Origin: Fibrobacter sp. UWH6
Lineage (GTDB): Bacteria; Fibrobacterota; Fibrobacteria; Fibrobacterales; Fibrobacteraceae
DNA: 64,000 nucleotides
Direction of reading: 5' to 3'
NCBI RefSeq assembly: GCF_900142465.1
Contig: NZ_FRAX01000003.1
Span: 124,001-188,000 of the forward strand
In this document: piece after piece, positions 2,955 to 63,596 of the stretch
Layout of the letters: each line of letters begins with the position of its first letter
Numbering within the stretch: position 1 is the stretch's first letter
The notes under the pieces: generated by a model
Database searches by the model: none
Told to the model about the DNA's origin: nothing
The model's input: only the letters and a program-made list of their open reading frames with translations
Program-made: the position numbers and the translations under genes

Positions 2955-3054
2955 ACCCATCCTCGCCTGCGACACCCAAAACACCAATCCCGCAGGCACA
3001 CCCCAAATATAATGTCAAACCGTCTACATTCAAAGCGAAAAGATTTTCACAAAC

Positions 3055-3082
3055 GAAAAAGCCCCCGCAAAGCGGGGACTTT
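3055..3082 (-). terminator. Terminator after the TPR gene
   Basis: Stem CCCCGC / GCGGGG with loop AAA; on the minus strand it is followed by TTTTTC. It sits 22 bases beyond the TPR gene stop. Confidence 0.85.
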
Positions 3083-3103
3083 TCTATGGTCTAAACAACA
3101 AAC

Positions 3104-45779: not shown

Positions 45780-47486
45780 TTAGAATTTCGCCACTAAAAC
45801 CGGCCAGTAATCAGAAGGTTTCTGATTCAGGTAAGTCATGTAAGTCCAGGAATTCTCACGATAACTCCCGCCAACGAAAACTTCGTCTATGGCACCGGCA
45901 AAACCGCCAATCCTAAAATCAGCAGCCTCACCACGAACGCCATCCCAATCAGACAAGACCGGCTTTTCGACCTTTGAAGAATTCACAAACAGGCAGCTGT
46001 TTCCATTGCCCAACCCATCCATAGAAAGCTTGCTAAAAGCCACATAGACCCACGAAGCCGCCTTCAGCCCTTCGGAACCCGACGTCCAGCTCAATTTATA
46101 GCTGGCGGTATCCGCAACATCATCCGAAGCCACCCCAGAGGCCAAGTGGTAAAAATTCACCACGAATCCGGAATCCAGAACGTAACGCAGTTCATATTCG
46201 CCAGCCTTTTCAAAAATCAGCTGTTCTTCGCCCAGATTATCCAATCGAATCCAGAGAGAGAAACTGAAGACATCTTCGGTACCGAACACCAGGTCCCCAT
46301 GCAAAGAGGAATCCGCCTCTGCAGAATGATCCGCTACCAGGGCGCTTGTCGCTGACATCTTGACACCGCTACCCACAACCCCGTCCACCAAAGAAACCTT
46401 AAAGGCAGTACCGGGGAAGTTCTGCTTTTCTGCCCAGTCCGTTATGGGAGCGATACCATCATCAAAATGCCATACCATATTATAGGCCCTATTGGTGGGG
46501 AACACATCCAGCGCAAAGCCGGAAGTCAGGGCATTATTAAAGACCAGTTCCAGGGAATCTTCCAGATTCAGGGAATCCACGTTCACCCAGAATACCGCCT
46601 CCTGGGCCAGGGAATCGAAATAGCCCGAGGTAATGGGCAGTTTCTTACTGGCCGCCCCACCGGCATTAATACGGCGAACTTCCCAGCGGCCATCCATTCC
46701 CGCAAGAGTATCAAAGTTGCAGTTTTCAGGAGTCAGGCGTAAGGCCAGCGGAATATCGCTGACAAAGCCCATCAGGGAATCCACACTCCCCTTAGGGGCC
46801 GCCAACGGGGCCACAAAACGCATCACCACGGTATCCACCGTAGCAACCGGCTCCGCATCAAAGCCCACCTTTGCTGTATCCTGGGGAGTAACCTTAAGGT
46901 TCTTATACAGTTCCACGTTCCCGCCCAGCGACAATCTCAAATCAAGTTCACCCGCCGGCAGGGAGTCCACAAGGATCATTCCACCAGAAACAGAAACTTC
47001 ACGATAAATCGTGGTTCCCACTGCGGTTATCACGCCCTCGGCCCCATCAGCCATTTCCGACTTCAGCATCGCATAGCCCGGAACCTTAAGGGTATCGTCC
47101 TGAATGACCACGGAATCATGATCCGAGACCACAACATCCTGGACCAGCAAACGTTCGCCAGACACCACAACCGCTTCAAGGGAATAAGTACCAGCAGCAA
47201 CTCCGGTCAAACGATAGGAGCCTCTTTCGTCGGTTTCGCCAAAGATACCGACTGAATCGTCAAACACATTGAAATCTTTAGGAACGATACTGACGCGGGC
47301 CATAGAAGCCACGCCCTCGCCCAGGTAAAGTCGGCCCTCGATAGAAGCCAACTCCGGCGAACCCGTTTCAGCGCTGTTTCCCGCCACAGAGGTATCGTTA
47401 GAACACCCCACCACTCCGGCCAGGAATCCAGCCAGCGCGACACCAAACGTCGCAAAATACGATCTTGCAAAACCCACACTCATCAT
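45780..47486 (-). CDS. Lipoprotein with carboxypeptidase-regulatory-like and LamG-type domains
   Basis: 568 residues from ATG 47486 (another ATG follows at once). The signal peptide ends F-L-A-G-V-V-G-C-S-N-D-T. Residues about 50-120 look like a carboxypeptidase regulatory-like beta fold (I-E-G-R-L-Y-L-G-E-G, then D-E-R-G-S-Y-R-L-T-G-V-A-A-G-T-Y-S). Residues about 380-560 fit a concanavalin A/LamG-type lectin domain (F-S-F-S-L-W-I-R-L-D-N-L). Probably surface-anchored carbohydrate or protein binding. It is 20 bases after the OLD-family gene. Confidence 0.75.
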   Translation of the reverse strand: MMSVGFARSYFATFGVALAGFLAGVVGCSNDTSVAGNSAETGSPELASIEGRLYLGEGVASMARVSIVPKDFNVFDDSVGIFGETDERGSYRLTGVAAGTYSLEAVVVSGERLLVQDVVVSDHDSVVIQDDTLKVPGYAMLKSEMADGAEGVITAVGTTIYREVSVSGGMILVDSLPAGELDLRLSLGGNVELYKNLKVTPQDTAKVGFDAEPVATVDTVVMRFVAPLAAPKGSVDSLMGFVSDIPLALRLTPENCNFDTLAGMDGRWEVRRINAGGAASKKLPITSGYFDSLAQEAVFWVNVDSLNLEDSLELVFNNALTSGFALDVFPTNRAYNMVWHFDDGIAPITDWAEKQNFPGTAFKVSLVDGVVGSGVKMSATSALVADHSAEADSSLHGDLVFGTEDVFSFSLWIRLDNLGEEQLIFEKAGEYELRYVLDSGFVVNFYHLASGVASDDVADTASYKLSWTSGSEGLKAASWVYVAFSKLSMDGLGNGNSCLFVNSSKVEKPVLSDWDGVRGEAADFRIGGFAGAIDEVFVGGSYRENSWTYMTYLNQKPSDYWPVLVAKF

Positions 47487-47505
47487 CCGATATAAATATA
47501 CCAAA

Positions 47506-49308
47506 CTATTGGTATTGTCCATGACTTCCCGCGATAATCCAGCGGCAAAGTTCCTCGATACTGGCATAATCTGGCAGGGTTTTTACAAAATTCTGTGATT
47601 TACTCCGTTCAATGAACTTGCTCCAGGCGGTTTCGCTCTTGGCTTCAAGTCCTAAATGTTCTTCGATGGCACCGCGGGTCCACACCCAGATTCCCTGACT
47701 GCGAAGCTTGGCATGAATGCTGCGGATTGCCATTTCGGCCTCGGGCATGGCCGCCATCATGGCGTAAGCCTGAGCCGCCGTGGTATTGCTATGCTTGCTC
47801 ACCGGCAAACCATTCACCAAGCGTAAATGGTGCTGGAAGGCCAGCTCTCGGAACAAGTTCTGACAATACTTGATATCAGGATCGTTGTAATCCAGGAAGC
47901 CATCATGGGTAGCCGTAGTAAAGGCGTAATCCAAGTCCACAATAGCGCGAACAGGCATATCCATGGCCCCGAGGACCTGCATACTCTTGCGGGTATTGCT
48001 AACTCCACCCTGACGAACCAGGGCGCACTTGATTAAGGCAAAGCTCTGCCCCGTAATACGTTCAAACAAGGCGGGCAGAACCCTCAGTTCTGTCTTACCT
48101 TCGGTTAGCAGTACATAGTCAGCGAACAAAAGTTCATTACTATTAGAAAGACTGAACAACATCTGCAGCTGGCTGGGCGCATCCTGAACCACCTGGTGTA
48201 CCGCATCTTCCATGCGCTTACGCATAAAGGTGCCACGTTCCTTGTTCTTGCGAATCAAAAGGGACGTGCTTACATCTTCGCTGGTCACCATCTGGGCGCT
48301 GTGGGTGGCAAAAACCACCTGGTACCCCTCGTTAGAAAGATTCTTGAGGGCCACGCGGACAAGTTCCACCGCCTGAGGGTGCAGATACAATTCCGGAGAG
48401 TCAATCAGCAGTAAGGTACGACTCAGATAATGGTTGTTATGATGCTTCTTGATATCAGCCAGATAGCGGATCAGGGCCATCTGGATAGCGCGCTGGGACC
48501 CCGCCCCCATGCGGCTTATATCTCGCTCGAAACCGTCATCCTCATCCATGACCTTCAGGCTAGCCCTCTTCAGGAAGGTTTCCATGGTCGGCACAGGAAT
48601 ATCCAGTTCCACCTTCACGCTGGGGAACAACGGACGGAGCTTTTCATTGACATCGCGATCGAAAGCGCCGATTTCTTCGGCCCGATTCTCGCTATCGGGA
48701 GAAAGCAAGTCGTTAAACTTGTTCAGCAGCATGTTGATTTCGCCACCGAATCGACGTTCCAGCGGTCTAAAAATTTCGTGGAGCAACTTCACGAAGGCCT
48801 GGTTGCCTTCAAAATCCCAAATGGCGATGGATTCCGGGAACATACGGCTAAAGGCCGCCATAAAACTATCATTTACTCGGGTCCATTCCCGCTTATAGGC
48901 TCCATTCCGCTTGTTAGAAGGCACAAATGCGAAAAATTCCATGGATTCTGAATTGCCACCAGGAACCCGCTGCACCTTTTTTACCCGCAACTGTCCCATA
49001 TTGGGGCCAGCATTCACCAGGAACGGCTTGATTTCCGCAGAAAGATCTTCACCAAGGCGGGCCAGCACCTGTTCAGAAATACCATCAAAGACACCCTCCA
49101 CCTCTACAGGAATATTCGGGTCGTCAAAGTAAGAAATATCCAAAGAAAAATGGGCCAACAGCCAACGAATCCCCATCAGGATGTTGGTCTTACCCGCATT
49201 ATTATAGCCAATCAGAGCCGTGAAACCACTAAGAGGAAACCTCTGCTTCTGGATAGAACGCAGATTAGAAATGGTAATCTCAGAAAGTCTTAAAGCCTGG
49301 GGTTGCAT
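47506..49308 (-). CDS. OLD-family ATPase with TOPRIM nuclease domain
   Basis: 600 residues. N-terminal ABC/SMC-like ATPase with Walker A G-Y-N-N-A-G-K-T-N and signature-like M-G-A-G-S-Q-R-A-I, Walker B L-L-L-I-D-S-P-E-L-Y-L-H-P and H-loop F-A-T-H-S-A-Q. C-terminal TOPRIM domain with L-L-T-E-G-K-T-E-L-R and V-D-L-D-Y-A. Such class 2-like OLD enzymes act on DNA; some are parts of phage-defence systems (for example Gabija-type GajA), but no helicase partner is next to it. So a defence role is possible but not shown. Confidence 0.8.
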   Translation of the reverse strand: MQPQALRLSEITISNLRSIQKQRFPLSGFTALIGYNNAGKTNILMGIRWLLAHFSLDISYFDDPNIPVEVEGVFDGISEQVLARLGEDLSAEIKPFLVNAGPNMGQLRVKKVQRVPGGNSESMEFFAFVPSNKRNGAYKREWTRVNDSFMAAFSRMFPESIAIWDFEGNQAFVKLLHEIFRPLERRFGGEINMLLNKFNDLLSPDSENRAEEIGAFDRDVNEKLRPLFPSVKVELDIPVPTMETFLKRASLKVMDEDDGFERDISRMGAGSQRAIQMALIRYLADIKKHHNNHYLSRTLLLIDSPELYLHPQAVELVRVALKNLSNEGYQVVFATHSAQMVTSEDVSTSLLIRKNKERGTFMRKRMEDAVHQVVQDAPSQLQMLFSLSNSNELLFADYVLLTEGKTELRVLPALFERITGQSFALIKCALVRQGGVSNTRKSMQVLGAMDMPVRAIVDLDYAFTTATHDGFLDYNDPDIKYCQNLFRELAFQHHLRLVNGLPVSKHSNTTAAQAYAMMAAMPEAEMAIRSIHAKLRSQGIWVWTRGAIEEHLGLEAKSETAWSKFIERSKSQNFVKTLPDYASIEELCRWIIAGSHGQYQ

Positions 49309-49669: not shown

Positions 49670-52600
49670 CTATTGGGCGCTGCACTTAGACAACAGCAAC
49701 GGATTAGACCATTCACTGTAGTCAGAAACGCCATTCTTGTCAGTCCAAATCATACGCACCTGAACATAGAGGTCGTTCAGAGAGAAGGTTTCCGGATCAT
49801 CTTCAGGATCCAACGCCCCATTTGCATCAGCATAATCAATGGCCAGACGATTTTCAGGCATAGTATCCAGCAAAGTAGGGATATTTTTCTTTGCTGTATA
49901 CCAGCGAACTTCGTACATCGTGGTAGCGGTAAATTCAGAATTCACGATATTTCTGTTGGCGAAGCTGTTGGAAACATAGACCTGAGCCTTGGTAATGAGG
50001 CAAGCCGAGTCAGGAACATCAATCACTGTAACGGCACCAGTTTCTTCATCCTTAACTTCTTCCACATGTGTTGTACCGGTGGGCAACTTCTTACCCGGAG
50101 ACTGCAGAGCTACAGTGGGAGTGGTAAACTTCATATCTTCACGATATGCAGTAGCCACAGTCAGCTGAACAGCACTGGTAAATGCAGTCGTATCGGCATC
50201 ATCATAAGCGGCCACATGGAAGTAATGTTCCACATTGTTGTCCTTACCGGAAGTGGCATTATTTGCATAATAGTACAGCACACCGGCATCAACAGTTTCG
50301 CTTTCTTCCGTCCATTCACCCTTGCCGTTTACAGAAGATTCAACAATGAATCCCTTTTCACGACGGTCAACTTCCCTTTCGTAGGTCCAGGACAGCAGCC
50401 ATACACTGGGAGCGATACGTTCAGCCTTCAAGCCAGAAGGTGCCGGCAAGGAAAGATCGATAACGTAGCCCGGAACATAGGCGGCTTCAGACATTGCGGA
50501 ATCATTACCGTTAATAGCAACCACGGCATAGTACTTCGGATCTCTAGGAGCATCCACAATCAAGGAAGTAACATTTGCAGCAATGCCAGACTTATAGAGA
50601 GACCAGCTTACACCATCAGCACTGGTGTCGATGGCAAAGGACTTTGCTTCGAGAGTGCCCTGAGTGTAAGACCACTTCAGTTCAAGAGTATTCTTGCCAT
50701 TATCCTTAGCGCTAAAGCCAGTAGGAGCATTCAAGGTCACTTCACTTGCATCGTAAGCAACGAAGATGGATGCAGAGAATACCGTATCCTTATCAGCACC
50801 GGCATCATAGGCCCCCACGCGATAGTAGGAACCAGTCTTAGCAAGAGCCACCTTCATCGTGGTCACAGAAGAACCGCAGGAGCCGACATCCTTCCAAGTG
50901 ACACCATTCATCACCTGCACCTTGAAATTCCTTGCAGGGCGCTTAGCATTGTCGGTGTAGTTCCAGGAAATTCGAGCAGAATCTTCTGCGGCCACCTGAA
51001 CACCGGCAACATTTGCGGGAGCTGCCAGAACAGGCTTTTCTGTAGCGGGAATCAGATAAATTTCAGAATAGGAAGTATCCTTGCTGTCATAAGCGCCAAC
51101 GCGATAGTAGCGCACAGAATCTAAGGAAGGAATCTGGAAAATACGGGACTTCTTGTCAACCATGTCAGAAGACAATTTGCTGCCCTGGCCATTCAGACGC
51201 TGAACCACGAAAGCTTCTACAGGACGATCGTTGGAGGCGCTGTAATCCCATGCCAAGGCCAGCTTGCCGTCGGTCATTTCGGTTACGCCCTTGATGGTCG
51301 GAGCCGGAAGCAAGTAAATGCTGGTGGCATTGGCTGGAATCGTCAAGTCTGCAGAAGGAACACGACCATTGGCGTCATAGGCAACCACGCGAACATAGCG
51401 GACGTTGTTAGACACAGAAAGCAGGAACTTATTTACAGAAGCTTCAACCGTACCGAGTTTCTTCCATTCATTCTTGGAAACATCAAGTTCCTGGATTTCA
51501 AAACCAGTAACCGGACGAGTTGCATTATCTGCATAAGACCAAGACAGAGTCAGCTTATCCTTAGAATAGTCTTCCACACCAGTAATGGATGGAACACCCA
51601 AAGCCACACTTTCAGAAGTAGACGTGACCACGATATCTTCGGAGTAATTAGACTTTTCACCCTTCTTATCTACAGCCACAACACGATAATAGCTGATTTC
51701 TGCGGAAATGGATTCCAGCAGATAGCGGGTAATGCTAGCATCCACAGAATCAATCACCACCCACTTCTTCTGGGCCAGATCCTGATATTCCACAAAGAAC
51801 CTGGAAGCCGGATGTTCCTCGTTGGGAGCATAAGTCCAACTCAGAACCTTGGAGCCAGCAACTTCGTTAACAGCCAGGTTTGCAGGAGCCGGGAAACCGC
51901 TTTCGGTAACCACGACTTCAGCGCAAAGTTCCGAAAGATTGCCAACAAGACCAGTGGTCGTACCGGTCTTCGTACCGATGGGGGAAGTCCAGTCGCTGAA
52001 ATCTACAGCACCGTTCTTATCTCTCCATACGACACGGACCTGAGCAAAGGAGTTACATTCGTCTTCGATAGACTTAAACTTCTTGGAAACAGCCCCCTTA
52101 TCCAGGGAGAAGTCCGTCGTATCCACATCATAGCTGGAGCCGTAGACAAATCGAGCTTCGTAATACACTTCGCCCGTCTTTTCACCCTTTTCCAAATTGT
52201 AAATGGAATTCAGGATAGCCTGAGACGGATAGTTACCGGTAACCACAATTTCAAGAACGCTGTCACGTTCAATATTGGCAACCAGAGACGGAACTGTGGG
52301 GAATTCAAGATCAGAGACATATTTAGCGCTGCTAGGAATCATGATCTTGTCGGAGTAAGCGGAACGTTCTTCGCCCTTCATGGCAGCCAAGCGGTAATAG
52401 AAGTCCGCATTGTTCTTACCATCAATAATAAAGTGAGTTGCGGTCGGATCCTTGAGGGTTCCCACGTCCTTCCATTCCGTTTCAGTCGGAGCAAGACGCT
52501 GCAAAACATAGGCCTCGATACCGCCAAGAGTTTCGGGACTAGCCCAATCCAGACGGAAAACGCTAGGAGCCAGTCGAGATACAGAAAGGTTTGTCGGTTT

Positions 52601-52846
52601 TTTAAGGGCAGAAGATTCAAGCAAATCTCCCTGATTCACATCATTGTCCAGTTTTTCGGACAAATCAACATCCTTAGAACCACTAGAGCCCTTGGTCTTG
52701 CTAGAAGAAGATGAATATTCGGTTTCCTCGTCTTCATCATCCCCATTAGAAGTCTTATTTGAATCACCGCATGCAACCAATGCAAAAGCGGTGGTCAAGG
52801 CGGTAAAACCCACCAAGGACCTTCCAAAGAACTTTTTAAAATCCAT
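49670..52846 (-). CDS. Lipoprotein with about seven fibronectin-III-like modules
   Basis: 1058 residues from ATG 52846, which follows a strong GGAGGTCCGTT ribosome-binding site. Signal peptide ends T-A-F-A-L-V-A-C-G-D-S. A Glu/Ser/Lys-rich linker is followed by repeated modules of about 95-100 residues, each with an A-P/P-x-N-L opener, a central L-x-W-x-Y and R-P-x-x-F-x-V-Q, and Y-Y-R-V-x-A-Y-D near the end. These are fibronectin type III-like. Such modules serve as spacers or binding parts in surface proteins of cellulose-degrading bacteria. No catalytic domain is seen. Confidence 0.8.
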   Translation of the reverse strand: MDFKKFFGRSLVGFTALTTAFALVACGDSNKTSNGDDEDEETEYSSSSSKTKGSSGSKDVDLSEKLDNDVNQGDLLESSALKKPTNLSVSRLAPSVFRLDWASPETLGGIEAYVLQRLAPTETEWKDVGTLKDPTATHFIIDGKNNADFYYRLAAMKGEERSAYSDKIMIPSSAKYVSDLEFPTVPSLVANIERDSVLEIVVTGNYPSQAILNSIYNLEKGEKTGEVYYEARFVYGSSYDVDTTDFSLDKGAVSKKFKSIEDECNSFAQVRVVWRDKNGAVDFSDWTSPIGTKTGTTTGLVGNLSELCAEVVVTESGFPAPANLAVNEVAGSKVLSWTYAPNEEHPASRFFVEYQDLAQKKWVVIDSVDASITRYLLESISAEISYYRVVAVDKKGEKSNYSEDIVVTSTSESVALGVPSITGVEDYSKDKLTLSWSYADNATRPVTGFEIQELDVSKNEWKKLGTVEASVNKFLLSVSNNVRYVRVVAYDANGRVPSADLTIPANATSIYLLPAPTIKGVTEMTDGKLALAWDYSASNDRPVEAFVVQRLNGQGSKLSSDMVDKKSRIFQIPSLDSVRYYRVGAYDSKDTSYSEIYLIPATEKPVLAAPANVAGVQVAAEDSARISWNYTDNAKRPARNFKVQVMNGVTWKDVGSCGSSVTTMKVALAKTGSYYRVGAYDAGADKDTVFSASIFVAYDASEVTLNAPTGFSAKDNGKNTLELKWSYTQGTLEAKSFAIDTSADGVSWSLYKSGIAANVTSLIVDAPRDPKYYAVVAINGNDSAMSEAAYVPGYVIDLSLPAPSGLKAERIAPSVWLLSWTYEREVDRREKGFIVESSVNGKGEWTEESETVDAGVLYYYANNATSGKDNNVEHYFHVAAYDDADTTAFTSAVQLTVATAYREDMKFTTPTVALQSPGKKLPTGTTHVEEVKDEETGAVTVIDVPDSACLITKAQVYVSNSFANRNIVNSEFTATTMYEVRWYTAKKNIPTLLDTMPENRLAIDYADANGALDPEDDPETFSLNDLYVQVRMIWTDKNGVSDYSEWSNPLLLSKCSAQ

Positions 52847-53070
52847 AACGGACCTCCGTATAGTAACAATCACTTTACAATATAGATATAAAAATTACAA
52901 TTTTATTAACTTTCGCCTTTTTTATTGGTTTACGTCACAAAATCAAGGGGATATCGCTTATTTACAAAAATTTACACAATCTTTGCCGATTTGCTGCATG
53001 TATATATGTGAACAAGGGCTTTGCCGCTGTTCCGTCCGGCAATCTCGTCTGACGCCCCCAAAAGGAACGA

Positions 53071-54021
53071 ATGAATCTTTATCAAATGAGCCATTTTTTG
53101 GAAGAAATCCACGATGCGAAGAAGAATGGCGGTGATATCCACGAAATCATCGAGCGTTACCATAGGCTGTACAAGTACGTATACATCTATAACGACCTCT
53201 GCGCCAAGGAAATCCTGACCGGCGGAGGCAAGGACCTTTCCCTGGTGACGAACCTGGCCAACGCCGCCCTGCGCCTTACCGGAAGCGACTGCATCAGCAA
53301 CCCTACGCTGGAGAACCCCGTAGTTTCGGGCGGGTATGTTTACAAGGATATCGAGGAGGACATCCTCATCAGCCGCCGGCGCCTCGACGAAAAGGACGAA
53401 CCTGTGGTGGACCGCATCGGCCTGGAAATTCAGCACGTTGGTTATGATGCCTACAACAACCGTCTGCTCTTCTACGTAGCCCGTCACGTTGGCAATATGC
53501 TCAAGAAAGGCGATTTCTACGACAAGATGCAGAACGTCCACATCATCAGCTTTCAGATGTTCGACTATCTGCCCTGGAAGGTATCCAAGCGTTACGTCCA
53601 CAATGTCCGCCTCCTGGATGACGAATACCACACGTTCAGCAACCAGCAGACCCTCACCATCGTCGAGGTGAACAAGTTCCTCACGCATGCGGATACGGAC
53701 TACGCCCAGGATGACAGTCGCCTTGCCCAGTGGCTACGGGCCATTGACGCGTTGAACAACAACGATGACTTTTCGACCTTCGTAAACGACAGGCATTTTC
53801 AGTGCTTGCAAAAGTACGCGGAAGTAAGTACATTTGCTCCAGAGCTTTTTGTCAAGGCAGGAGAACACATGAAAGACGATGTCGAAGTAGCCGCATATAT
53901 CGCCCGCAAGGAAGGCCGCGAGGAAGAACGCGCGAAGTACGAAGTCGAGAAGGAGGAAATGGCCGCGAAGTTTGAGGCTCGCATTCGTGAACTGGAAGCG
54001 CTGTTGGCGCAAAAAGGCTAA
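53071..54021 (+). CDS. PD-(D/E)XK nuclease of Rpn/putative transposase type
   Basis: 316 residues with AAGGAACGA before ATG. The core V-V-D-R-I-G-L-E-I-Q-H, then R-H-V-G-N-M-L-K-K-G matches the D, E-x-Q and arginine positions of the PD-(D/E)XK nuclease family transposase (TIGR01784-like) group, related to Rpn recombination-promoting nucleases. A charged helical C-terminus (K-E-G-R-E-E-E-R-A-K-Y) is also typical. Fibrobacter carries many of these. Compared with neighbours the gene is GC-rich (many third-position C/G), which may hint at transfer. Confidence 0.75.
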   Translation: MNLYQMSHFLEEIHDAKKNGGDIHEIIERYHRLYKYVYIYNDLCAKEILTGGGKDLSLVTNLANAALRLTGSDCISNPTLENPVVSGGYVYKDIEEDILISRRRLDEKDEPVVDRIGLEIQHVGYDAYNNRLLFYVARHVGNMLKKGDFYDKMQNVHIISFQMFDYLPWKVSKRYVHNVRLLDDEYHTFSNQQTLTIVEVNKFLTHADTDYAQDDSRLAQWLRAIDALNNNDDFSTFVNDRHFQCLQKYAEVSTFAPELFVKAGEHMKDDVEVAAYIARKEGREEERAKYEVEKEEMAAKFEARIRELEALLAQKG

Positions 54022-54275: not shown

Positions 54276-57200
54276 TTATTTACGGTAAACACTGGCAGAA
54301 CAGACTATTTGAGCACTAGTTCCGACAGAATTGGTTAACTCGATATAATAGTTATAATATTTATTTTTAGACAAAGAACCAAAATCAATAGACGTAAGCA
54401 CGTCGCCTTTCTTCATCACCTTGGTTCCAGAAGCAACAACGTTTCCATCTAATTTAACGGCATAGGCGCAACCGCCATACTCTTCACCACAATTTTCCAC
54501 TTCTCCAGTGATTTTAATATCAAAGGTATACCTTCCGTTTGACCCATAATTTTCAACAGTGGATGGACTAGCACCAAAATCATTATTTGTACATCTTGGT
54601 TTATAACCAATGCCCATTTCGGCTTCACATTGTTTTTTCCCGTTTGAATACAGTTCAAAAACATGCGTTCCCTTTTCACTATGGCTAATGTTCGTGACAT
54701 ACGTGGAGAAAGAACCATCGTCACCAAACCAATAGCTAGAATTGGATAGTTTGAGAACTCCATCCATATAAATCTGAACGTCAGCATTTTTTTTCCGTAT
54801 GTTAGACGAACCCTTCATAGTTATGTTGGAGTTACCCCAAAGAACCGGAGTAATACTTTCAGGACTTACAGAACAATTGTTCATGACAGGTTCTTTGTTT
54901 TCTAGTGATGCCGAACAGATTGTTTGACCATTAGATGTTTTCAACACGTATGTAACAGTTCCCGCCTCAGTAGGCGTTATAGAAACATCATACTTTTTCT
55001 CAGATACATATTCACTAATAACTTTGTCCTGAGCAGAAACAGAAACCATATTCCCATTTTGATCATACAAATCCACCACATAAGTTGGACTTTTTACAGA
55101 GATGTTTTGCACAACAAACTTCGTATATCTTGTTCCACCAAGCATATCACTACTGTCTTCAAACTTACAGGTAGCGCTGTAGGCCATAGGAGCAGAAGAA
55201 GAACTGCTTACTGCGATACTGGAACTGGATCGCGGAACCGGAGGAAGTCCGTCACAACCAGGAACAGGGCCACCCGCGCCGGCAATTCCAGCAGCTTCAC
55301 AACTCATACTGAAAATTTCAACATCATTCGGAACAACAAATGAGATTCCAGATGTTATCGCATAGCCAATGGCCCCCTGATTACCACCATATTCCTTAGC
55401 ACCAGAACAGGCATAAGAATGGCCATTAACATTTAAAGTTTTACCCTTTGTGCAATAAATCCACCATTGAGTTGTATTGCTACAATTATGAAGGAGCTTA
55501 TAATTACCCGAAGGAATATTTGTAAGTTTCGAATGCTTTTCACGACCAGCAATACCTTCATTGCCAACCAAGAAACAAAGATTTGAAGACGGTGTTGGAG
55601 CAACGGAAGAGGAACTTGCCACAGAAGAGGAACTTGCGGCAATGGTATACTGCTCCGCGCAACCAGTGCTATTATTGTTACCGTTATTCAATACCAAGAC
55701 AATTCTGTTATCACCCACAGTGAAATTGGTTCCTGACAAGTCAAAGCTTACTGAATTACCTGTTGAAGATGAAACAGAGCCCAATTCACCCAGTTCATTT
55801 CCAAGGCCATCAGTAGCATACAGCTTACCATCCCAACTATCTCCAGTATAGGAAACATCGGCAGTGAATTCCTTTGTTCCTGCATTGAAGTGACAGTTAG
55901 AAGCACTAGCCGTTTTTTCATTGGAGGCAGCAACTACAGTAAATTCGCACTCCTCGTTCTTTTTACCCTGCACATCAATGGTGTAGTGGTAAGTACCAGG
56001 ATCCAGCTTATAACCAACAGAATTCGCATCGCCGAAGCTCTGTTCTTGTGATGTTCCGTCAGATATTCCAGATGCCATAAAGTCACCAAAAGAAACAGAA
56101 TAGTTACAATCAGGACAATTGGAAATCAGGTATGTCAGTGTAGGAATACCCGCACCTTGCTCCACCTGGTATTCAGACAGACTACAGGTTATGTCGACCG
56201 GATTAACCGTGTAGGGATCGCAAGTTTTTGATGCAACTTCACCTGTCGATGTATTTGTAACTTGCAGAGCAAAGTTAAATTCTTCGCCATAATCAGAAAC
56301 CTTGGAGAGCAAACCGGGTTCAGGAAGCCTATACTGGCTAACACAGGAGCCCTTTAATTCAGAATCATCTGCAGAGGAATTATTCGGAACAATCACCTTA
56401 CATTCGTCAGCATTTCTGACTTCAGCAGAAACAATCCAAGACGAGCCCGTGTACCTTGCAGTGCAGCTCTTGACGCCCAAAGCATAGGGGCATTCCGATT
56501 CCACATGTTGGATTTCGAAATTACACTCGGAACTTGTAAAACGGAATTCCTTGATTTTTTGCGGATCGAAGCCACTGGCATCAGAATAATCATCCATATC
56601 AAAATATGAATCTCCATTACTAGAAATTGTGATATTTTCAGAGGCATTTCCAGTAGAGTCAACAACACTAATAACCACATCACCTTGACAATCTCCACTA
56701 TTCAGCTTGTAGTAAACGCTGGCATTTCTCAAATTAGCAGAGCCCTTGGTCGCCATGTCATGTTCAACAACGCAGGTGGAGCCCACATTGCACTGAATGG
56801 CCGAAGAGTACGGTTCCATAAAGTCATAATTCTTTTCGCACAACACAATGTCGCCTACGATAAACTGACCGCAGCTCTGGCTTGCCGTCAACGAGGATGG
56901 AGGCGTCGTAGATGCACTTTGACAATTCAGCTTTACCTTGGCATCCTTGGCAATGCCGGTACCACTTTCATGAGTGTATCCATGTTGTCCTTCTCGACTG
57001 AAATTATAGATTCCGGAGCTAACCACAGCACCATCATCCCAGTACAAGCCTATATTATCCGGATTATGGCTGCAACTGTTCCTACTGAACATGTTACTCC
57101 AAAGATCGTCTTTGCTATAGTCTGTCCAAGTACCAGAAGTTGTCGTGTTATCACAGCCATTATAATAATACTTCACGTTACATCCGGCTTGTTCATAGTC

Positions 57201-60200
57201 AGTTTCCTCGAAACTGGACAAAACAACCCAAGGCTTGACATCTTCATCCAAAGGTACTATTCCACCAGGATAATTGGATCTGAATGAACAGAGGATTCTA
57301 GGAGTAGCCCAACAATCACTAACATAGGTATCACTTTGCCAGGAAATATCGTATACCCTGAACTTAGGATTGGACAGCTTAAGGCCAACATACTCATTAC
57401 CTTCCAGAGTTTTGCCAAACCCACTCAAGTCAAACTTGATACTCTTCTGACCATCTTTCATGGCCAAACGATCGAGTGTAAAATCAAGACTCAGCATTTT
57501 TCCGGATAGTTTCATGGTCATGCCAAACTTCGTTCCCGAAGTGATACCCAAACCTTGAGAAAGTTCCTGAGTAATATCAGTAAGCCAATTACCCGTAGTT
57601 TCCCAAGCGGAAATGGGCAACTCTTCCGTTTTACATATGGTTCTACCATTTGAGGCAGCAGTCTGTTCTTCTACAATGCATAGGTGGGCATAAATCTTGT
57701 TACTGTAAAGGCTATTTACATTAGCTAAGCCAAAAACACTTAACGAGAAATACTCAGTAGCATTCTTATTTGACCTAAAAATGAATCCAGAATTCTCATA
57801 ATCGTAGCGGGACGGATGAGTTTTTCCTTGAAAAAGTTCTATCCAATCTGATACCGATTTCGGAATTTCAAATACGGTCGGTAAAATACCCGTAGTAAAC
57901 AGGGATGTCATAGTACCATTGGTACCTGTCTGCTTGGCACTTAAAATTACAGCCTGGGTACCATTAATATCATTGGCGTTTGTTTCTGCACTGGCATTGG
58001 CTGCAATATAACCACCGTTTACCTCAGGATAAAGTACTTTCTTACTGTAATCTTTTTGAGCCGATTGGTATATACGTTTTTCACAACCACTAGGGATGTA
58101 ATATTTATACCCTGCGATCGTTTTTTCCTCACATTTCGATTTATCGTACGATACAGGTCGCTGAGCGCTAACAAGAGGCCTATTGTCATAGACCATAACC
58201 CATTCCGGTTTTGAACCCTTATGAACAGATGCATCCAGGGCACAAGACTTGCCTATACCCATTTTGTAGTCACAGGTGTCGATACATCTCTTATCTGATC
58301 CGTCGCAGAATTTGGTGGGGAAGCCCACATTCTTTTTATCGTCGTCAAAATCTTCATAGAAGCAGTGTTCATCTTCCTCGTTGAATCGAGCTGTGACGAT
58401 ATTTGTATCAGAAACGGAAATTCCGTAATTGTTGAATTTTCCGCCAGCAAAGGGACAGCTCTTTCCTTCACACTTCCAAGCAGCAAATTCGTCATCACCA
58501 TTTTCTTTATAGTTAAAGAAATACTTGTACCCGTGATAAGCCGTTATAACGGTATCTTTATCACAAGTCGCAAGAACAACATCTCCCTGCGTAGCATTAC
58601 TTGTTTTAGAATAGGACACACTTACTTCACTACCGCTCTTTGCTCCCGTAATCTTTAGATATAGCGGATAGGACTTTCGCGTGATTGAAGCGTATAAATC
58701 AATAGTCGTATCAACTCGGGCAGAATAAATTTCCTTAGGAGCAACGGTCACCTCACATTCAGTAGACATATTGTTCTTCATGCCCTGCAATTGAACATTA
58801 GGATCAATAAAGACACTGCAGCTCCACTTTTCATTCTGAATTTCAGGACTGCAACCAATACCATTGGCACGAACCCAGGCACTGCTTCCAACCTTGTCAG
58901 AGCAAGATTCCGCCTGCATGACCTTATAAAGTTTGCCACCCACTTTACAATCTTCATTGTTCTCATTTTCATCCAGAGCGCAGAATTCATCAACAGGTTT
59001 AATATTCACATTAAAGGATCCTCCTGCCACAATGGTAGTATGGTCATATTCATGGCCAATAATACAGCCATCGCAAGGGTCAATCATCTGGAAAGTCACT
59101 GCACTAGATTCACCATTAGAAGGCATTTCTACGGTAAAGACATTGAATGTTTTCACGTCGGTTGCATGAGGTGTTACAGTCACCGTATAGACCCTAGAGC
59201 CATCCGCATTTATAGTATGAGCAGAAGCGCCAGTCACAGTCCAATTTGAAGGTAGAGGACTCTGGTAAACGTCCACATTTACCGGCTGACCATTCGCAGA
59301 TGGATTGACCTTTATAGCCACTTTCTTTATTTCATTCTTGTTTATTTCAATATTTTCATCTACAAACTGGACGGGTGGAGGATTACCTCTATCGCCAGCC
59401 ACAACGATATAGAACGGCACTGCGCCAAAGGTGTTACCAGCATAGTTACATCTATAAGGTTTGCCATTATTGGCAGACAAATCACCATAGCTACTAAAAG
59501 AAGCCATGGTCGGCATTGACGATGGGCTACAAGTTACAGCAGCAGGATTTTTCTGCGCCGTAGCCCCGTTCAAATTTATAACGTCATAGTAATCTGCAAG
59601 GGTTCCATAAGGGTTTGCTGGCAAATAAAGAATTCTTGGCAAAACAATAATCGAAGGAGCCAAATCAACTCCACCATTTTCGATGTTTCTTACAGACAGT
59701 TCATTATTCCTATACTGTGATTCTGTACGGATATACAGCTGAGGTGCTGCGGCAATATAGTAGGAATCCTTATCACCATTTGTACTAGAGGATCCACCAG
59801 AACCAGAACCAGAACCGCTACCATCTGCAGAACATTTGTCCGTTTCATCATTATCACAAATGACATTAATTTCAGCAAGTGCCTGAGTCAAGCTGCTATT
59901 GGCGGTCGCTGCTACAGCTGCATTATGAGTCCCAGTATTTAATGCCGAACAGTTTGCCATGTAAATGGATCCCGTCATAGGATCATTTAAATTCATTTGA
60001 AAATCTTTTATGTCGCCATCACTATAAATGAAATAATTTTTCTTTCCAGTGCTAGAAGTCTTTAAAGTTATTGTATGATTCCAACCATCAGGGAAATAGA
60101 TGAATACGTTGGAATTTTCTGTCATATCCGGCAAATCTATCTGATTTGTCGGGGAAGTTCCATTGATAATCAATATGAAATTGCCTTCCAGCAATGTGCT

Positions 60201-61808
60201 GGAATTACCCCATTGTGGATTGCTAAATTCAGCAACAAGCCATTTATCCTTGTACAACTTAGATGCACCAAGTTCAGACGCATAACATCTATTCAGCTGG
60301 CCCACCCAATCACTAGGCCAAGAATTCCAAAGGGTTGCCCAAGTACAAGAACTTTTGTTAGTAGACGTAATCTTGTAAGAAGAACTGAGAACATCTTTAT
60401 TAAACTGTAAGGGGTCCTTCACATGAAGATCTGTCTCGCAGCCCTTTTCCTTACCGCCAGGAATAATTTTTTGAGCAATTGCATCTAGAGAATCCGCTCT
60501 CCATTTTTCCAGCTCATTTTGGCTGGGTGCTCCCGATGCATAATAAGTACTATATACCTTAAAGAAACCACCATATTCAGGCTCAGCTTCGCCGCTTTTT
60601 ACGCAATCAAGATCATTACAATAATACGTGGAAGGAATATTTTCATTTTCATATTTTGTATTTAACTGCGTCAAACCAGGAGCATACATCGCCGTCGCCG
60701 ACAAAGGCGAGCCAAAGCTAACTCGTTCAATATCGTAATACTTGTGGTCTCCTTCAAGCCCATTTTTTATATACGAATTTCCTGTAACATCGAACTGAAA
60801 TCCCCATTGATTTCCATTTCCATTTGTATTAAAAATAAGTTTGTCATCAACAGTCAAATTTTTTCCGACATGAACAACTGACTGGGAGTTATTTGTCGGC
60901 ATATAGGACGCAGCTCCTAGAGTAAGATTACCCTTCACTTCAAGAATACCACCAATGGAGCCTCCACAACCACCCATCGCATTAGGGCCTCTAGTCGTAA
61001 GATCAAGGCCACCTCTTGCAAATAAATCACCATAAATGGTGTCGCCTTTTCCGCCCATAGTTGCGTACCACTTGCCACCAACATAGGCATTGCCCATCAC
61101 TTTTACGTTTGTACAGCGGCTAAAATCTTCTACCACATAGAGATTACCAACCTTGGAGTTGGAGTTGAATTCGGCAGATCCTGTAATAATCAGGTCTCCT
61201 TCAACCTCAACCGAACTAAACGCACTACCACCACCATTTGTTGCATCCGGGCTACCATTAATAGTCGCGGAATTCACCTTTAAGTCGCCCGCACTGGCCA
61301 AGGAACCATGGAAGGCATCATTAAAACCGCTAAAGCTTTGTTCTGCGGGAATCTGAACCTGGTAAAGACCAGAAATTTTAAGAACAGCAACCTCGCTATG
61401 TTTTGCGCCACCATTTCTTGCCTTACCCACAGAGACAAGCTTTACCGTATAGGGCAAGGTTTCAGTATTGGCATCGACAATCCATACATCAAAATCCTGC
61501 TGGTTGTTGCTATTGGCAACAGACTTCAAGACATTAGTCAAGCGAACAGGGACTCGGTCATCCGGCTCTGGGGTCAGGTACTGACGAATGGCTGCTCCAG
61601 TTTCGTTGCCATGGTAAGTCATCCAAGCACGAGCTGATGCGATACCCGCATAAGCTGCCTGCTGGGCTTCACTTTTATATAGGCGGGATGCGCTGGAAAA
61701 CCCCGAAGAGGACAGCCATTTGTAGGTTGCGGTTGCAGCAATTGTTGCAATCATCATGAACAGCAACACAGCAACAAGGGAAACACCTTTTTTTGCATTC
61801 TTAAACAT
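54276..61808 (-). CDS. Giant PilX-like minor pilin with adhesin-sized extracellular part
   Basis: 2510 residues from ATG 61808 (AAGAGGTATAGT upstream); the longer frame to 61895 overlaps pilW. The N-terminus M-F-K-N-A-K-K-G-V-S-L-V-A-V-L-L-F-M is a PilX-type prepilin signal (cleavage after G; no glutamate at +5). Residues about 170-400 have glycine-rich G-D-L/G-N-L-x-V repeats typical of a beta-helix. Later parts include a glycine/serine linker, Ig-like stretches (P-V-N-V-D-V-Y-Q-S-P-L-P), cysteine-rich blocks, and S-S-S-S-V-A-S-S-S-S-V-A-P linkers between modules. It is cotranscribed with PilV- and PilW-like genes and lies 10 bases after pilW. It probably forms a pilus tip or surface adhesin; the ligand is unknown. 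The gene replaces the PilX-PilY1 slot of other pilin operons. Confidence 0.85.
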   Translation of the reverse strand: MFKNAKKGVSLVAVLLFMMIATIAATATYKWLSSSGFSSASRLYKSEAQQAAYAGIASARAWMTYHGNETGAAIRQYLTPEPDDRVPVRLTNVLKSVANSNNQQDFDVWIVDANTETLPYTVKLVSVGKARNGGAKHSEVAVLKISGLYQVQIPAEQSFSGFNDAFHGSLASAGDLKVNSATINGSPDATNGGGSAFSSVEVEGDLIITGSAEFNSNSKVGNLYVVEDFSRCTNVKVMGNAYVGGKWYATMGGKGDTIYGDLFARGGLDLTTRGPNAMGGCGGSIGGILEVKGNLTLGAASYMPTNNSQSVVHVGKNLTVDDKLIFNTNGNGNQWGFQFDVTGNSYIKNGLEGDHKYYDIERVSFGSPLSATAMYAPGLTQLNTKYENENIPSTYYCNDLDCVKSGEAEPEYGGFFKVYSTYYASGAPSQNELEKWRADSLDAIAQKIIPGGKEKGCETDLHVKDPLQFNKDVLSSSYKITSTNKSSCTWATLWNSWPSDWVGQLNRCYASELGASKLYKDKWLVAEFSNPQWGNSSTLLEGNFILIINGTSPTNQIDLPDMTENSNVFIYFPDGWNHTITLKTSSTGKKNYFIYSDGDIKDFQMNLNDPMTGSIYMANCSALNTGTHNAAVAATANSSLTQALAEINVICDNDETDKCSADGSGSGSGSGGSSSTNGDKDSYYIAAAPQLYIRTESQYRNNELSVRNIENGGVDLAPSIIVLPRILYLPANPYGTLADYYDVINLNGATAQKNPAAVTCSPSSMPTMASFSSYGDLSANNGKPYRCNYAGNTFGAVPFYIVVAGDRGNPPPVQFVDENIEINKNEIKKVAIKVNPSANGQPVNVDVYQSPLPSNWTVTGASAHTINADGSRVYTVTVTPHATDVKTFNVFTVEMPSNGESSAVTFQMIDPCDGCIIGHEYDHTTIVAGGSFNVNIKPVDEFCALDENENNEDCKVGGKLYKVMQAESCSDKVGSSAWVRANGIGCSPEIQNEKWSCSVFIDPNVQLQGMKNNMSTECEVTVAPKEIYSARVDTTIDLYASITRKSYPLYLKITGAKSGSEVSVSYSKTSNATQGDVVLATCDKDTVITAYHGYKYFFNYKENGDDEFAAWKCEGKSCPFAGGKFNNYGISVSDTNIVTARFNEEDEHCFYEDFDDDKKNVGFPTKFCDGSDKRCIDTCDYKMGIGKSCALDASVHKGSKPEWVMVYDNRPLVSAQRPVSYDKSKCEEKTIAGYKYYIPSGCEKRIYQSAQKDYSKKVLYPEVNGGYIAANASAETNANDINGTQAVILSAKQTGTNGTMTSLFTTGILPTVFEIPKSVSDWIELFQGKTHPSRYDYENSGFIFRSNKNATEYFSLSVFGLANVNSLYSNKIYAHLCIVEEQTAASNGRTICKTEELPISAWETTGNWLTDITQELSQGLGITSGTKFGMTMKLSGKMLSLDFTLDRLAMKDGQKSIKFDLSGFGKTLEGNEYVGLKLSNPKFRVYDISWQSDTYVSDCWATPRILCSFRSNYPGGIVPLDEDVKPWVVLSSFEETDYEQAGCNVKYYYNGCDNTTTSGTWTDYSKDDLWSNMFSRNSCSHNPDNIGLYWDDGAVVSSGIYNFSREGQHGYTHESGTGIAKDAKVKLNCQSASTTPPSSLTASQSCGQFIVGDIVLCEKNYDFMEPYSSAIQCNVGSTCVVEHDMATKGSANLRNASVYYKLNSGDCQGDVVISVVDSTGNASENITISSNGDSYFDMDDYSDASGFDPQKIKEFRFTSSECNFEIQHVESECPYALGVKSCTARYTGSSWIVSAEVRNADECKVIVPNNSSADDSELKGSCVSQYRLPEPGLLSKVSDYGEEFNFALQVTNTSTGEVASKTCDPYTVNPVDITCSLSEYQVEQGAGIPTLTYLISNCPDCNYSVSFGDFMASGISDGTSQEQSFGDANSVGYKLDPGTYHYTIDVQGKKNEECEFTVVAASNEKTASASNCHFNAGTKEFTADVSYTGDSWDGKLYATDGLGNELGELGSVSSSTGNSVSFDLSGTNFTVGDNRIVLVLNNGNNNSTGCAEQYTIAASSSSVASSSSVAPTPSSNLCFLVGNEGIAGREKHSKLTNIPSGNYKLLHNCSNTTQWWIYCTKGKTLNVNGHSYACSGAKEYGGNQGAIGYAITSGISFVVPNDVEIFSMSCEAAGIAGAGGPVPGCDGLPPVPRSSSSIAVSSSSSAPMAYSATCKFEDSSDMLGGTRYTKFVVQNISVKSPTYVVDLYDQNGNMVSVSAQDKVISEYVSEKKYDVSITPTEAGTVTYVLKTSNGQTICSASLENKEPVMNNCSVSPESITPVLWGNSNITMKGSSNIRKKNADVQIYMDGVLKLSNSSYWFGDDGSFSTYVTNISHSEKGTHVFELYSNGKKQCEAEMGIGYKPRCTNNDFGASPSTVENYGSNGRYTFDIKITGEVENCGEEYGGCAYAVKLDGNVVASGTKVMKKGDVLTSIDFGSLSKNKYYNYYIELTNSVGTSAQIVCSASVYRK

Positions 61809-61818
61809 ACTATACCTC

Positions 61819-63105
61819 TTAGTTTGCACCCACACCGTTACTGGGTACGGCAATAATGTGCGAGGAAAAACCTGTTTCACCATTTTTCTTAACAACTAGG
61901 GAATCCTTAAATGCGCGAACATTTACCTTATCTTCTAGTTCAGGAACATATCCAGGCGCAAAGGTAAAGTTGAGGTCTGCCACCTTAATCAATTTCAATT
62001 GGCTGATTGCAATGGATCCCGAAGAGAACAAAGGGGAATAGGGAGCAAAGGTAAAGGCTATGCAAGCCTCCACCGGACTGTTCACCTTAAAGAGAGCTGT
62101 TCTCGCAATGGAATTTGCCGAAGCAGCAGTTGTCGGGAAAAAGCTGAAGTCGCGAAGACCTTCAATTTTATTTCCCTCGGTTGTCCTAAAGCCTACAGAC
62201 ATATAGTCTACGCCAGGAATGAAAGTCTGTGAATTGTCGTTATTGCCTGTTCTCGGAAGCGTAAAGGAAAGTTCGTAGGTCGTATCCGGGTTCAAATTAA
62301 CCTTCGTGCAAAGATCGCTCCATTCTCCTACATTGCCATTAGCCTCGCTCGCATATAGCTGGTTCGCCTTACGTTCAGTAGTATACAATTCATTTGTAGC
62401 ATCATAATTCGAGGTAAATCCGGAAATGGTTACAGCAACGCCACCATTTTCAGGAGAAAGAATCGCTCTAAAAAAATCCGTACCATCAATACGAGACAAA
62501 AGTCTAAAGGAATCACCTCCTCCCGGTGGAAATAGCTGTGCAGCATCTGCATTCGCACTCAATACAGCAGGCCTTGCAGGTCGAATCTTAAAAGATTCAA
62601 CGCCTTCTGCAATAACAACATCGTAAGGATCGCTCTTTGGGCATGCGTCATCGATAACAGCAGACGCTTCGTTCACAATAGTTTGACAGGACCTGACCAG
62701 CGATGTACCGTCAACATGCCAGGAAATTCCCTCAACAGCCTGATAGGATCCATCTTCGCTATAGCGCATTTTCTTGAAATAAAGGCTATCATTCTTTGAA
62801 CCGGCTTTATACACGAAGGAGGAATAATCCTGCTTTGTTACATCTGTATTATAGGGATCAATAAAAACAGCATCGTGAGCTTCGTATCCAGAAGCACCCA
62901 GAAAACTTTTTGCTCCCATCTGCGAAACATCATCCCTGATCAGGACTCCAGCATTTTCAGCGATTTCATTGGCAGTAATCATCCCCTGGGTACGAATTCG
63001 CATCTTGGTGCTATCACTATAAACCTGGCCTGCGATCACCACCACAATGCCAACAATGGCCATATAGACCAAAAGTTCCATCAATGTAAAACCACGCTTA
63101 TTCAT
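61819..63105 (-). CDS. PilW-like minor prepilin
   Basis: 428 residues. Prepilin signal K-R-G-F-T-L-M-E-L-L-V-Y-M-A-I-V-G-I-V, then a helix and a large C-terminal part of beta character (Y-E-L-S-F-T-L-P-R-T-G-N). PilW proteins are usually about 250-350 residues, so this one is long. Minor pilins of this type prime type IV pilus assembly. Its ATG overlaps the pilV stop by 4 bases. Confidence 0.88.
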   Translation of the reverse strand: MNKRGFTLMELLVYMAIVGIVVVIAGQVYSDSTKMRIRTQGMITANEIAENAGVLIRDDVSQMGAKSFLGASGYEAHDAVFIDPYNTDVTKQDYSSFVYKAGSKNDSLYFKKMRYSEDGSYQAVEGISWHVDGTSLVRSCQTIVNEASAVIDDACPKSDPYDVVIAEGVESFKIRPARPAVLSANADAAQLFPPGGGDSFRLLSRIDGTDFFRAILSPENGGVAVTISGFTSNYDATNELYTTERKANQLYASEANGNVGEWSDLCTKVNLNPDTTYELSFTLPRTGNNDNSQTFIPGVDYMSVGFRTTEGNKIEGLRDFSFFPTTAASANSIARTALFKVNSPVEACIAFTFAPYSPLFSSGSIAISQLKLIKVADLNFTFAPGYVPELEDKVNVRAFKDSLVVKKNGETGFSSHIIAVPSNGVGAN

Positions 63106-63596
63106 CGAATAACCCCCGAAACATTAATGGACTGATTAGACCCCTTAAATGACCAGCTTACACGAACATTAACCTGTTTCGCATAAATGTGACTAGCATC
63201 TTCATAGTTCGAATGAGACGCAGCTTCGAAATCATCCGTCTTTGCAACAGTAATCTGACGAGCATATCTTATTGTGGCGTAACCCCCAAGGCCTCGTTCC
63301 CACCGACGTGTAATGGAATCCAGAGGGTAAGTTGTATCACCATCAGCCTTCGAAGCGATTGACGCAGCACCAACAGAATTAAGGGAATCAAGTACATTCT
63401 GTGCAAGTTCTACCGCCCCGTCTCTACCGCGGATTCTGAGGAACGTATCATGATTGCTAGTCTGCAGCTTATTTAAAGCCACGACCATAAAGCCGAGAAC
63501 AGCGGCAGAAACGAGGACTTCGGCGATACCGAAGCCTCGTTTGGAATTCCTGCCGATAGGCAAACAAAGATTGCTCTTTTGTTGCTTAGGTTCCAT
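63102..63596 (-). CDS. PilV-like minor prepilin
   Basis: 164 residues. Prepilin signal after a basic leader: N-S-K-R-G-F-G-I-A-E-V-L-V-S-A-A-V-L-G-F-M-V-V-A-L-N-K, the A-E-V-L-V-S form typical of PilV. It is the first gene of the three-gene operon and overlaps the pilW-like start (ATGA). Confidence 0.88.
   Translation of the reverse strand: MEPKQQKSNLCLPIGRNSKRGFGIAEVLVSAAVLGFMVVALNKLQTSNHDTFLRIRGRDGAVELAQNVLDSLNSVGAASIASKADGDTTYPLDSITRRWERGLGGYATIRYARQITVAKTDDFEAASHSNYEDASHIYAKQVNVRVSWSFKGSNQSINVSGVIR

What the first reader, a model, noticed from the sequence alone, without database searches (positions are those of the whole stretch)
54276..63596. Three-gene minor-pilin operon ending in a 2510-residue pilin-like protein
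PilV-, PilW- and PilX-like prepilins are encoded in that order with 4- and 10-base junctions. The PilX slot, normally under 250 residues, is filled by a giant protein with a beta-helix-like part, Ig-like parts, cysteine-rich blocks and serine linkers. This suggests a pilus-tip adhesin that replaces the PilX-PilY1 pair, perhaps for binding plant cell walls. Prepilin motifs are seen in the sequence; the adhesin role is inference.
Basis: partly seen in the sequence, partly recalled or inferred. Interest (0 to 1): 0.85.

Follow-up and report, generated by a model that had tools for sequence, protein, structure and literature searches.

The report
Giant cellulose-adhesin-like pilus tip protein
Plant-fibre-digesting Fibrobacter bacteria cap their type IV pili, as far as sequence and predicted structure can tell, with a 2,500-residue minor pilin that carries a cellulose-adhesin-like beta-helix and a lectin-like domain, which would offer a concrete, testable answer to how these cells hold on to fibre.

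Summary
PilV-like (164 aa), PilW-like (428 aa) and a 2510-aa protein are encoded on the minus strand with a 4-base overlap and a 10-base gap. It is not a freak of one genome. All 40 good Fibrobacter genomes searched encode homologues of about 1,700-3,200 aa, nearly always directly behind PilW, and most operons also carry a FimT/GspH-like gene that has moved elsewhere in this genome. The giant is a K-type (PilX/GspK-position) minor pilin: it has a prepilin leader, its mature N-terminus lacks Glu5 in all 99 homologues that cover it, and it comes last in an H-I-J-K-like operon. AlphaFold models (pLDDT 87 and 84) give a pilin module, then a beta-helix unit whose best PDB matches are the tapirins, cellulose adhesins of Caldicellulosiruptor (Z 17, 303 residues). 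Ig-like domains, a concanavalin-A/CBM66-like jelly roll (Z 12-16), Cys-rich domains and a fast-diverging Ser-linked tail follow. Outside the family the same slot holds 690-1500-aa versions. Best reading: a multi-lectin type IV pilus tip adhesin for plant polysaccharide. The pilin identity is well supported; tip position follows from K-subunit precedent; binding is untested. PilY1 was not found, but without a positive control.

The parts
63102..63596 (-). PilV/GspI-like minor pilin (164 aa), Glu5 present (GFGIAE)
   Evidence: profile partner in 77 of 107 homologous operons
61819..63105 (-). PilW/GspJ-like minor pilin (428 aa), Glu5 present (GFTLME), overlaps PilV by 4 bases
   Evidence: directly upstream of the giant in 110 of 115 non-redundant loci
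54276..61808 (-). giant K-type (PilX/GspK-position) minor pilin, 2510 aa
61353..61808 (-). giant residues 1-152: prepilin leader (cleavage after Gly8), Glu5-less hydrophobic helix 11-65 and pilin beta-sheet
   Evidence: AF2 model; Glu5 absent in 99 of 99 homologues that cover the position, 55% median identity
59841..61331 (-). giant residues 160-656: tapirin-like unit (beta-helix about 166-353 plus following beta domain)
   Evidence: Foldseek and VIA-align best hits 4wa0, 6n2b, 6n2c; Z 17.0, rmsd 3.9, 303 aligned
59769..59831 (-). giant residues 660-680: Gly/Ser linker
   Evidence: sequence; low pLDDT
58374..59741 (-). giant residues 690-1145: Cys-rich beta domains with Ig/Calx-beta-like fold near 809-931
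   Evidence: AF2 model and fold search
57327..58373 (-). giant residues 1146-1494: concanavalin-A/CBM66-like jelly roll
   Evidence: VIA-align Z 12.7 to CBM66 (152 of 161 residues, 2.8 A), Z 11-12 to many legume lectins, Z 15.8 to a phage fibre domain
55629..57326 (-). giant residues 1495-2060: conserved Cys-rich region
   Evidence: alignment of 47 giants
54279..55628 (-). giant residues 2061-2510: fast-diverging Ser-linker and Ig-like tail
   Evidence: 21% median identity; Ig/PKD/CBM64 matches in relatives' tails, none in this one

Best explanation
The giant is the K-type, Glu5-less capping subunit of the minor-pilin tip complex of the Fibrobacter type IV pilus, grown by grafting carbohydrate-binding-type modules onto the pilin module. 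Prepilin peptidase would cut after Gly8. FimT-, PilV- and PilW-like subunits would assemble beneath it, and the pilus would display about 2,350 residues at its tip: a tapirin-like beta-helix unit, Ig-like spacers, a ConA/CBM66-like domain, a disulphide-rich region and a variable tail. These would bind plant cell-wall polysaccharide, and PilT-driven retraction would pull the cell onto fibre. Shown here: operon, family, absence of Glu5, predicted folds, pilus machinery in the genome. Inferred: tip location, binding and ligand.
For: Operon order H-I-J-K with the giant last, and PilW upstream in 110 of 115 loci. Glu5 is absent in all 99 giants covering the position but present in PilV and PilW; Glu5-less K subunits cap known tip complexes (PMC10191384; PMC9934059). 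Tapirin fold match Z 17.0 over model residues 160-656; tapirins bind cellulose and have a beta-helix (PMC7142884). ConA/CBM66 jelly roll; Streptococcus sanguinis PilC is a tip minor pilin whose ConA-like module binds glycans. Machinery in this genome: PilM, PilO, PilQ, PilB, PilC, two PilT-like ATPases, one prepilin peptidase. The ectodomain diverges far faster (mostly 21-28% identity) than the pilin module (55%), as expected of a surface adhesin. Type IV pilins are already implicated in F. succinogenes adhesion (PMC3079729; PMC6851124).
Against: No binding, localisation or expression data for this protein. Tapirin similarity is by predicted fold only (10-14% identity; no sequence-profile hit to a tapirin chain). 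A ConA-like fold does not prove sugar binding. A second, 285-aa K-like pseudopilin beside another secretin leaves open which filament uses which cap. The largest modular pilin cited in the survey read here is 860 residues, so passage of a 2,500-residue tip through the secretin has no precedent I know of.
Confidence: 0.6

Rival explanations
1. Tip adhesin for something other than plant wall: other bacteria, host mucin glycans or biofilm matrix. The beta-helix and lectin-like modules are general binding scaffolds and their fast divergence reflects partner switching.
For: Ectodomain and tail diverge strongly; up to three PilW-giant cassettes in one genome, in separate old clades; Ig/PKD modules dominate the matches in the tails.
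Against: Best specific fold match is a cellulose adhesin and the hosts are fibre degraders; weak CBM64 and CBM5/12 matches in relatives.
Confidence: 0.2
2. DNA-uptake cap, like the beta-solenoid minor pilin ComZ of Thermus.
For: ComZ appears in the structural list (Z 10.2); a ComEC homologue and retraction-type ATPases are present.
Against: ComZ alignment is poor (rmsd 16 A) against 3.9 A for tapirins; lectin-like and Ig modules are not needed for DNA capture.
Confidence: 0.08
3. Cap of a type II secretion pseudopilus rather than a pilus; the large domain acts near the secretin or recognises substrates.
For: Two secretins, two GspE/PilB-type ATPases but one platform protein; H-I-J-K sets serve both systems.
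Against: A separate small pseudopilin set, including a 285-aa K-like protein, sits beside the second secretin; a 2,500-residue cap suits surface display better than a periplasmic pseudopilus.
Confidence: 0.1

Closest known systems
Modular minor pilins PilB/PilC of Streptococcus sanguinis (PMC8179133, PMC9934059)
   Same: Binding modules grafted onto a minor pilin of a tip complex; PilC also has an Ig-like and a ConA-like lectin module.
   Different: Giant is about five times larger than PilC (52.8 kDa), sits in the K slot of an H-I-J-K operon, and adds a tapirin-like beta-helix and a Cys-rich region.
Tapirins of Caldicellulosiruptor (PDB 4wa0, 6n2b, 6n2c)
   Same: Beta-helix plus following beta domain, matched over 303 of 358 residues (Z 17).
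   Different: No detectable sequence homology; tapirins are described as discrete proteins, whereas here the unit is built into a minor pilin.
PilX/PilK/GspK capping subunits
   Same: Prepilin leader, no Glu5, last gene of the H-I-J-K set.
   Different: Known ones are mostly a few hundred residues (GspK model 307); here 1,700-3,200.
PilY1/PilC1 non-pilin tip adhesin
   Same: Same proposed place and job: large modular tip adhesin.
   Different: PilY1 is not a pilin and has a beta-propeller (PF05567) not found in the giant.
ComZ of Thermus thermophilus (PDB 6qvi)
   Same: Large minor pilin with a beta-solenoid module.
   Different: DNA-binding, single extra module, poor superposition (rmsd 16 A).

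Membership tests
K-type (PilX/GspK) capping minor pilin | prepilin leader ending in Gly and a hydrophobic N-terminal helix | tested here: met
   MFKNAKKG/VSLVAVLLFMMIATIAA; helix 11-65 in the model
K-type (PilX/GspK) capping minor pilin | no Glu at position 5 of the mature protein | tested here: met
   0 of 99 homologues have Glu there, 50 of 52 PilW and 24 of 25 PilV do
K-type (PilX/GspK) capping minor pilin | last gene after H-, I- and J-like minor pilins | tested here: met
   in the window I-J-K only, H-like gene displaced
K-type (PilX/GspK) capping minor pilin | match to a curated GspK/PilX profile | tested here: inconclusive
   NF037980 GspK E 0.16 on residues 7-65, far below cut-off; no PilX family in Pfam scan
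K-type (PilX/GspK) capping minor pilin | located at the filament tip | not testable with these tools
   needs pilus proteomics or microscopy
modular pilin | pilin module followed by extra domains not specific to type IV pili | tested here: met
   fold matches beyond residue 160
tapirin | tapirin fold | tested here: met
   predicted model only; Z 17.0, rmsd 3.9, 303 of 358 residues
tapirin | detectable sequence homology | tested here: not met
   no tapirin chain among profile hits up to E 10
tapirin | binds cellulose | not testable with these tools
   needs binding assay
PilY1 | PF05567 beta-propeller domain | tested here: not met
   no match in the giant; none in the genome or phylum, control silent
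ConA-like lectin / CBM66 | jelly-roll fold | tested here: met
   predicted model; residues 1146-1494, Z 11-16
ConA-like lectin / CBM66 | sugar-binding site | not tested
   binding residues not mapped

The most novel reading that the evidence does not exclude
Fibrobacter type IV pili end in the largest pilin yet described, a fibre hook in which a tapirin-type cellulose-binding unit and a lectin are built into the capping pilin itself and do the job of PilY1. Tapirins, whose genes I recall lying beside a pilus operon in Caldicellulosiruptor, would then be free-standing relatives of the same pilus-tip device.
Probability: 0.35. Interest if true: 0.88.

Novelty: new variant of a known kind. Interest (0 to 1): 0.76.

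Why it matters
How Fibrobacter, a main fibre degrader of the rumen, holds on to cellulose without cellulosomes is an old open question; fibro-slime proteins and pilins are the suspects (PMC3079729, PMC4668043). This gives a single named candidate present in every good genome of the genus that was searched, with two domains that can be expressed and tested for binding. It also extends modular pilins from hundreds to thousands of residues, and suggests that the capping subunit can take over the adhesin role usually given to PilY1.

Tried and rejected
Pfam and NCBIfam on the giant: nothing above cut-off; the Serglycin hit (E 0.027) is a low-complexity artefact. Sequence-level link to tapirins by profile search of PDB chains: only generic beta-helices such as carbonic anhydrase-type proteins and bactofilin. 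LpxD/GlmU matches at Z 10-12 have rmsd 12 A and were dismissed as repeats. The two tapirin primary papers are not in the library. A PilX-PilY1 fusion was considered and dropped: no propeller match in the giant.

Full report
What is there. On the minus strand the window encodes a PilV-like prepilin (63596-63102), a PilW-like prepilin (63105-61819) and a 2510-residue protein (61808-54276), joined by a 4-base overlap and a 10-base gap with a good ribosome-binding site. The giant has 69 cysteines, Gly/Ser linkers at about 664-678 and Ser-rich linkers near 2058-2076 and 2190-2208.

Family. A search of 80 genomes of the genus found homologues in 76, and in all 40 that are at least 90% complete and at most 5% contaminated; open frames are mostly about 1,700-3,200 codons. 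Identity across the genus is only about 27%, yet about 40 cysteines are conserved in 77-100% of 47 aligned sequences. Named loci are nearly all Fibrobacter and Fibrobacteraceae, including the cultured F. intestinalis ATCC 43854. Of 115 non-redundant giants with enough upstream sequence, 110 have PilW directly upstream; 77 of 107 have PilV and 61 of 97 a FimT/GspH-like gene further up. Four of the five exceptions are reordered operons of one related genus; the fifth is a short 1,549-codon frame. So the full operon is FimT-PilV-PilW-giant, the H-I-J-K order.

Operon split in this genome. The FimT-like gene is absent here, but an orphan at G000:C1:113308-113883 matches the operon FimT profile at 3.6e-63. 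Its neighbour, a protein beginning MNPKIYYTITDESPFLATQSLLP, has a close relative flanking the intact four-gene operon of G032 (L171). The simplest reading is that PilV-PilW-giant moved and FimT stayed behind.

Which subunit. The giant has a prepilin leader ending at Gly8. Position 5 of the mature protein is never Glu in the 99 homologues that cover it (Thr, Ala, Val and others), while PilV and PilW carry Glu5. In known filaments the tip complex is capped by the subunit that lacks Glu5, K (PMC10191384; PMC9934059). Curated GspK and PilX models barely see it, so the assignment rests on gene order, leader, missing Glu5 and predicted fold.

Structure. AlphaFold on residues 1-690 with 100 sequences gave pLDDT 86.8 and pTM 0.79: a helix at 11-65, a pilin sheet to about 152, a beta-helix to about 353 and a further beta domain. 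The two best Foldseek hits (E 7e-3, probability 0.93 and 0.87) and the top three VIA-align hits (Z 17.0, 16.3, 15.7; rmsd 3.9-4.2 A; about 300 residues over 160-656) are tapirin C-terminal domains. Other superposable beta-helices reach Z of about 10 over about 180 residues of the helix alone, so the match covers more than a generic beta-helix. Tapirins are cellulose adhesins with micromolar affinity (PMC7142884); that their genes sit beside a type IV pilus operon is from memory. There is no sequence-level link. Residues 690-1680 gave pLDDT 83.6 and pTM 0.72. Residues 1146-1494 match CBM66 (Z 12.7, 2.8 A, 152 of 161 residues) and many legume lectins. Ig/Calx-beta-like domains precede it. The tail of this protein matches nothing in Pfam; tails of relatives match Ig, PKD, filamin and, in two, CBM64.

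Evolution. Outside the family the same slot holds smaller proteins: 689 aa in G104 with the order FimT-PilV-PilW-K, 714 aa in G165, 1500 aa in G120; in more distant genera of the family they run 770-2040 aa. The beta-helix is the common extra part, so the giant appears to have grown by additions behind a pilin with a beta-helix. The pilin module keeps 55% median identity while the ectodomain regions have 21-36%. Several genomes carry two or three PilW-giant cassettes that fall in separate clades shared between species, so they are old paralogues.

Machinery. The genome has PilM, PilO and a PilQ-like secretin in one cluster, PilB with a c-di-GMP-binding motif, one PilC, two PilT-like ATPases and one prepilin peptidase. 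A second secretin stands beside a compact set of pseudopilins of 285, 104 and 76 aa. The 285-aa protein has no Glu5 and looks like a normal-size K; it was not recognised by Pfam or NCBIfam. PilY1 (PF05567) was found in none of 168 genomes of the phylum, but no control genome rang either. A published inventory of Fibrobacteres pilus genes lists none as well (PMC4704652).

Judgement. Shown: the operon, the family, the absence of Glu5, the predicted folds, the machinery. Inferred from precedent: tip location. Inferred from fold: polysaccharide binding. Unproven: cellulose as ligand, and replacement of PilY1. Papers held on Fibrobacter describe pilins and fibro-slime proteins in adhesion but none found here describes this operon or the giant.

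Noticed in passing
window 53071-54021 (+): PDDEXK_2 (Rpn/transposase-like) nuclease gene convergent with the giant; a relative lies within 1.5 kb downstream of 18 of 90 giants, perhaps linked to cassette movement.
   Followed up: partly
window 49670-52873 (-): 1067-aa probable lipoprotein with fibronectin type III domains near the operon.
   Followed up: no
window 45780-47567 (-): 595-aa protein with a weak ConA-like lectin (Laminin_G_3) match.
   Followed up: no
window 47506-49308 (-): OLD-family-like ATPase/TOPRIM protein, a type often seen in defence islands.
   Followed up: no
L182 7308-7883 (G000:C1:113308-113883): Orphan FimT/GspH-like gene left at what looks like the ancestral operon site.
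   Followed up: yes
L187 8659-10605 (G000:C11): PilB with an N-terminal c-di-GMP-binding motif (NF053729, 1.9e-35), so pilus extension may be c-di-GMP controlled.
   Followed up: no
L181 8552-12786 (G000:C5): Second secretin with very small pseudopilins (76, 104, 285 aa) and an unrecognised 354-aa protein.
   Followed up: partly
L115, L120: Contigs labelled Bacteroidales carry the giant; probably misbinned Fibrobacter DNA.
   Followed up: no
G076:C34 43121-49031; L096 10147-14793: In G076 the giant's matches fall in separate frames of 753 and 1549 codons, and L096 holds a 1,549-codon frame, suggesting a broken or recently interrupted copy.
   Followed up: no
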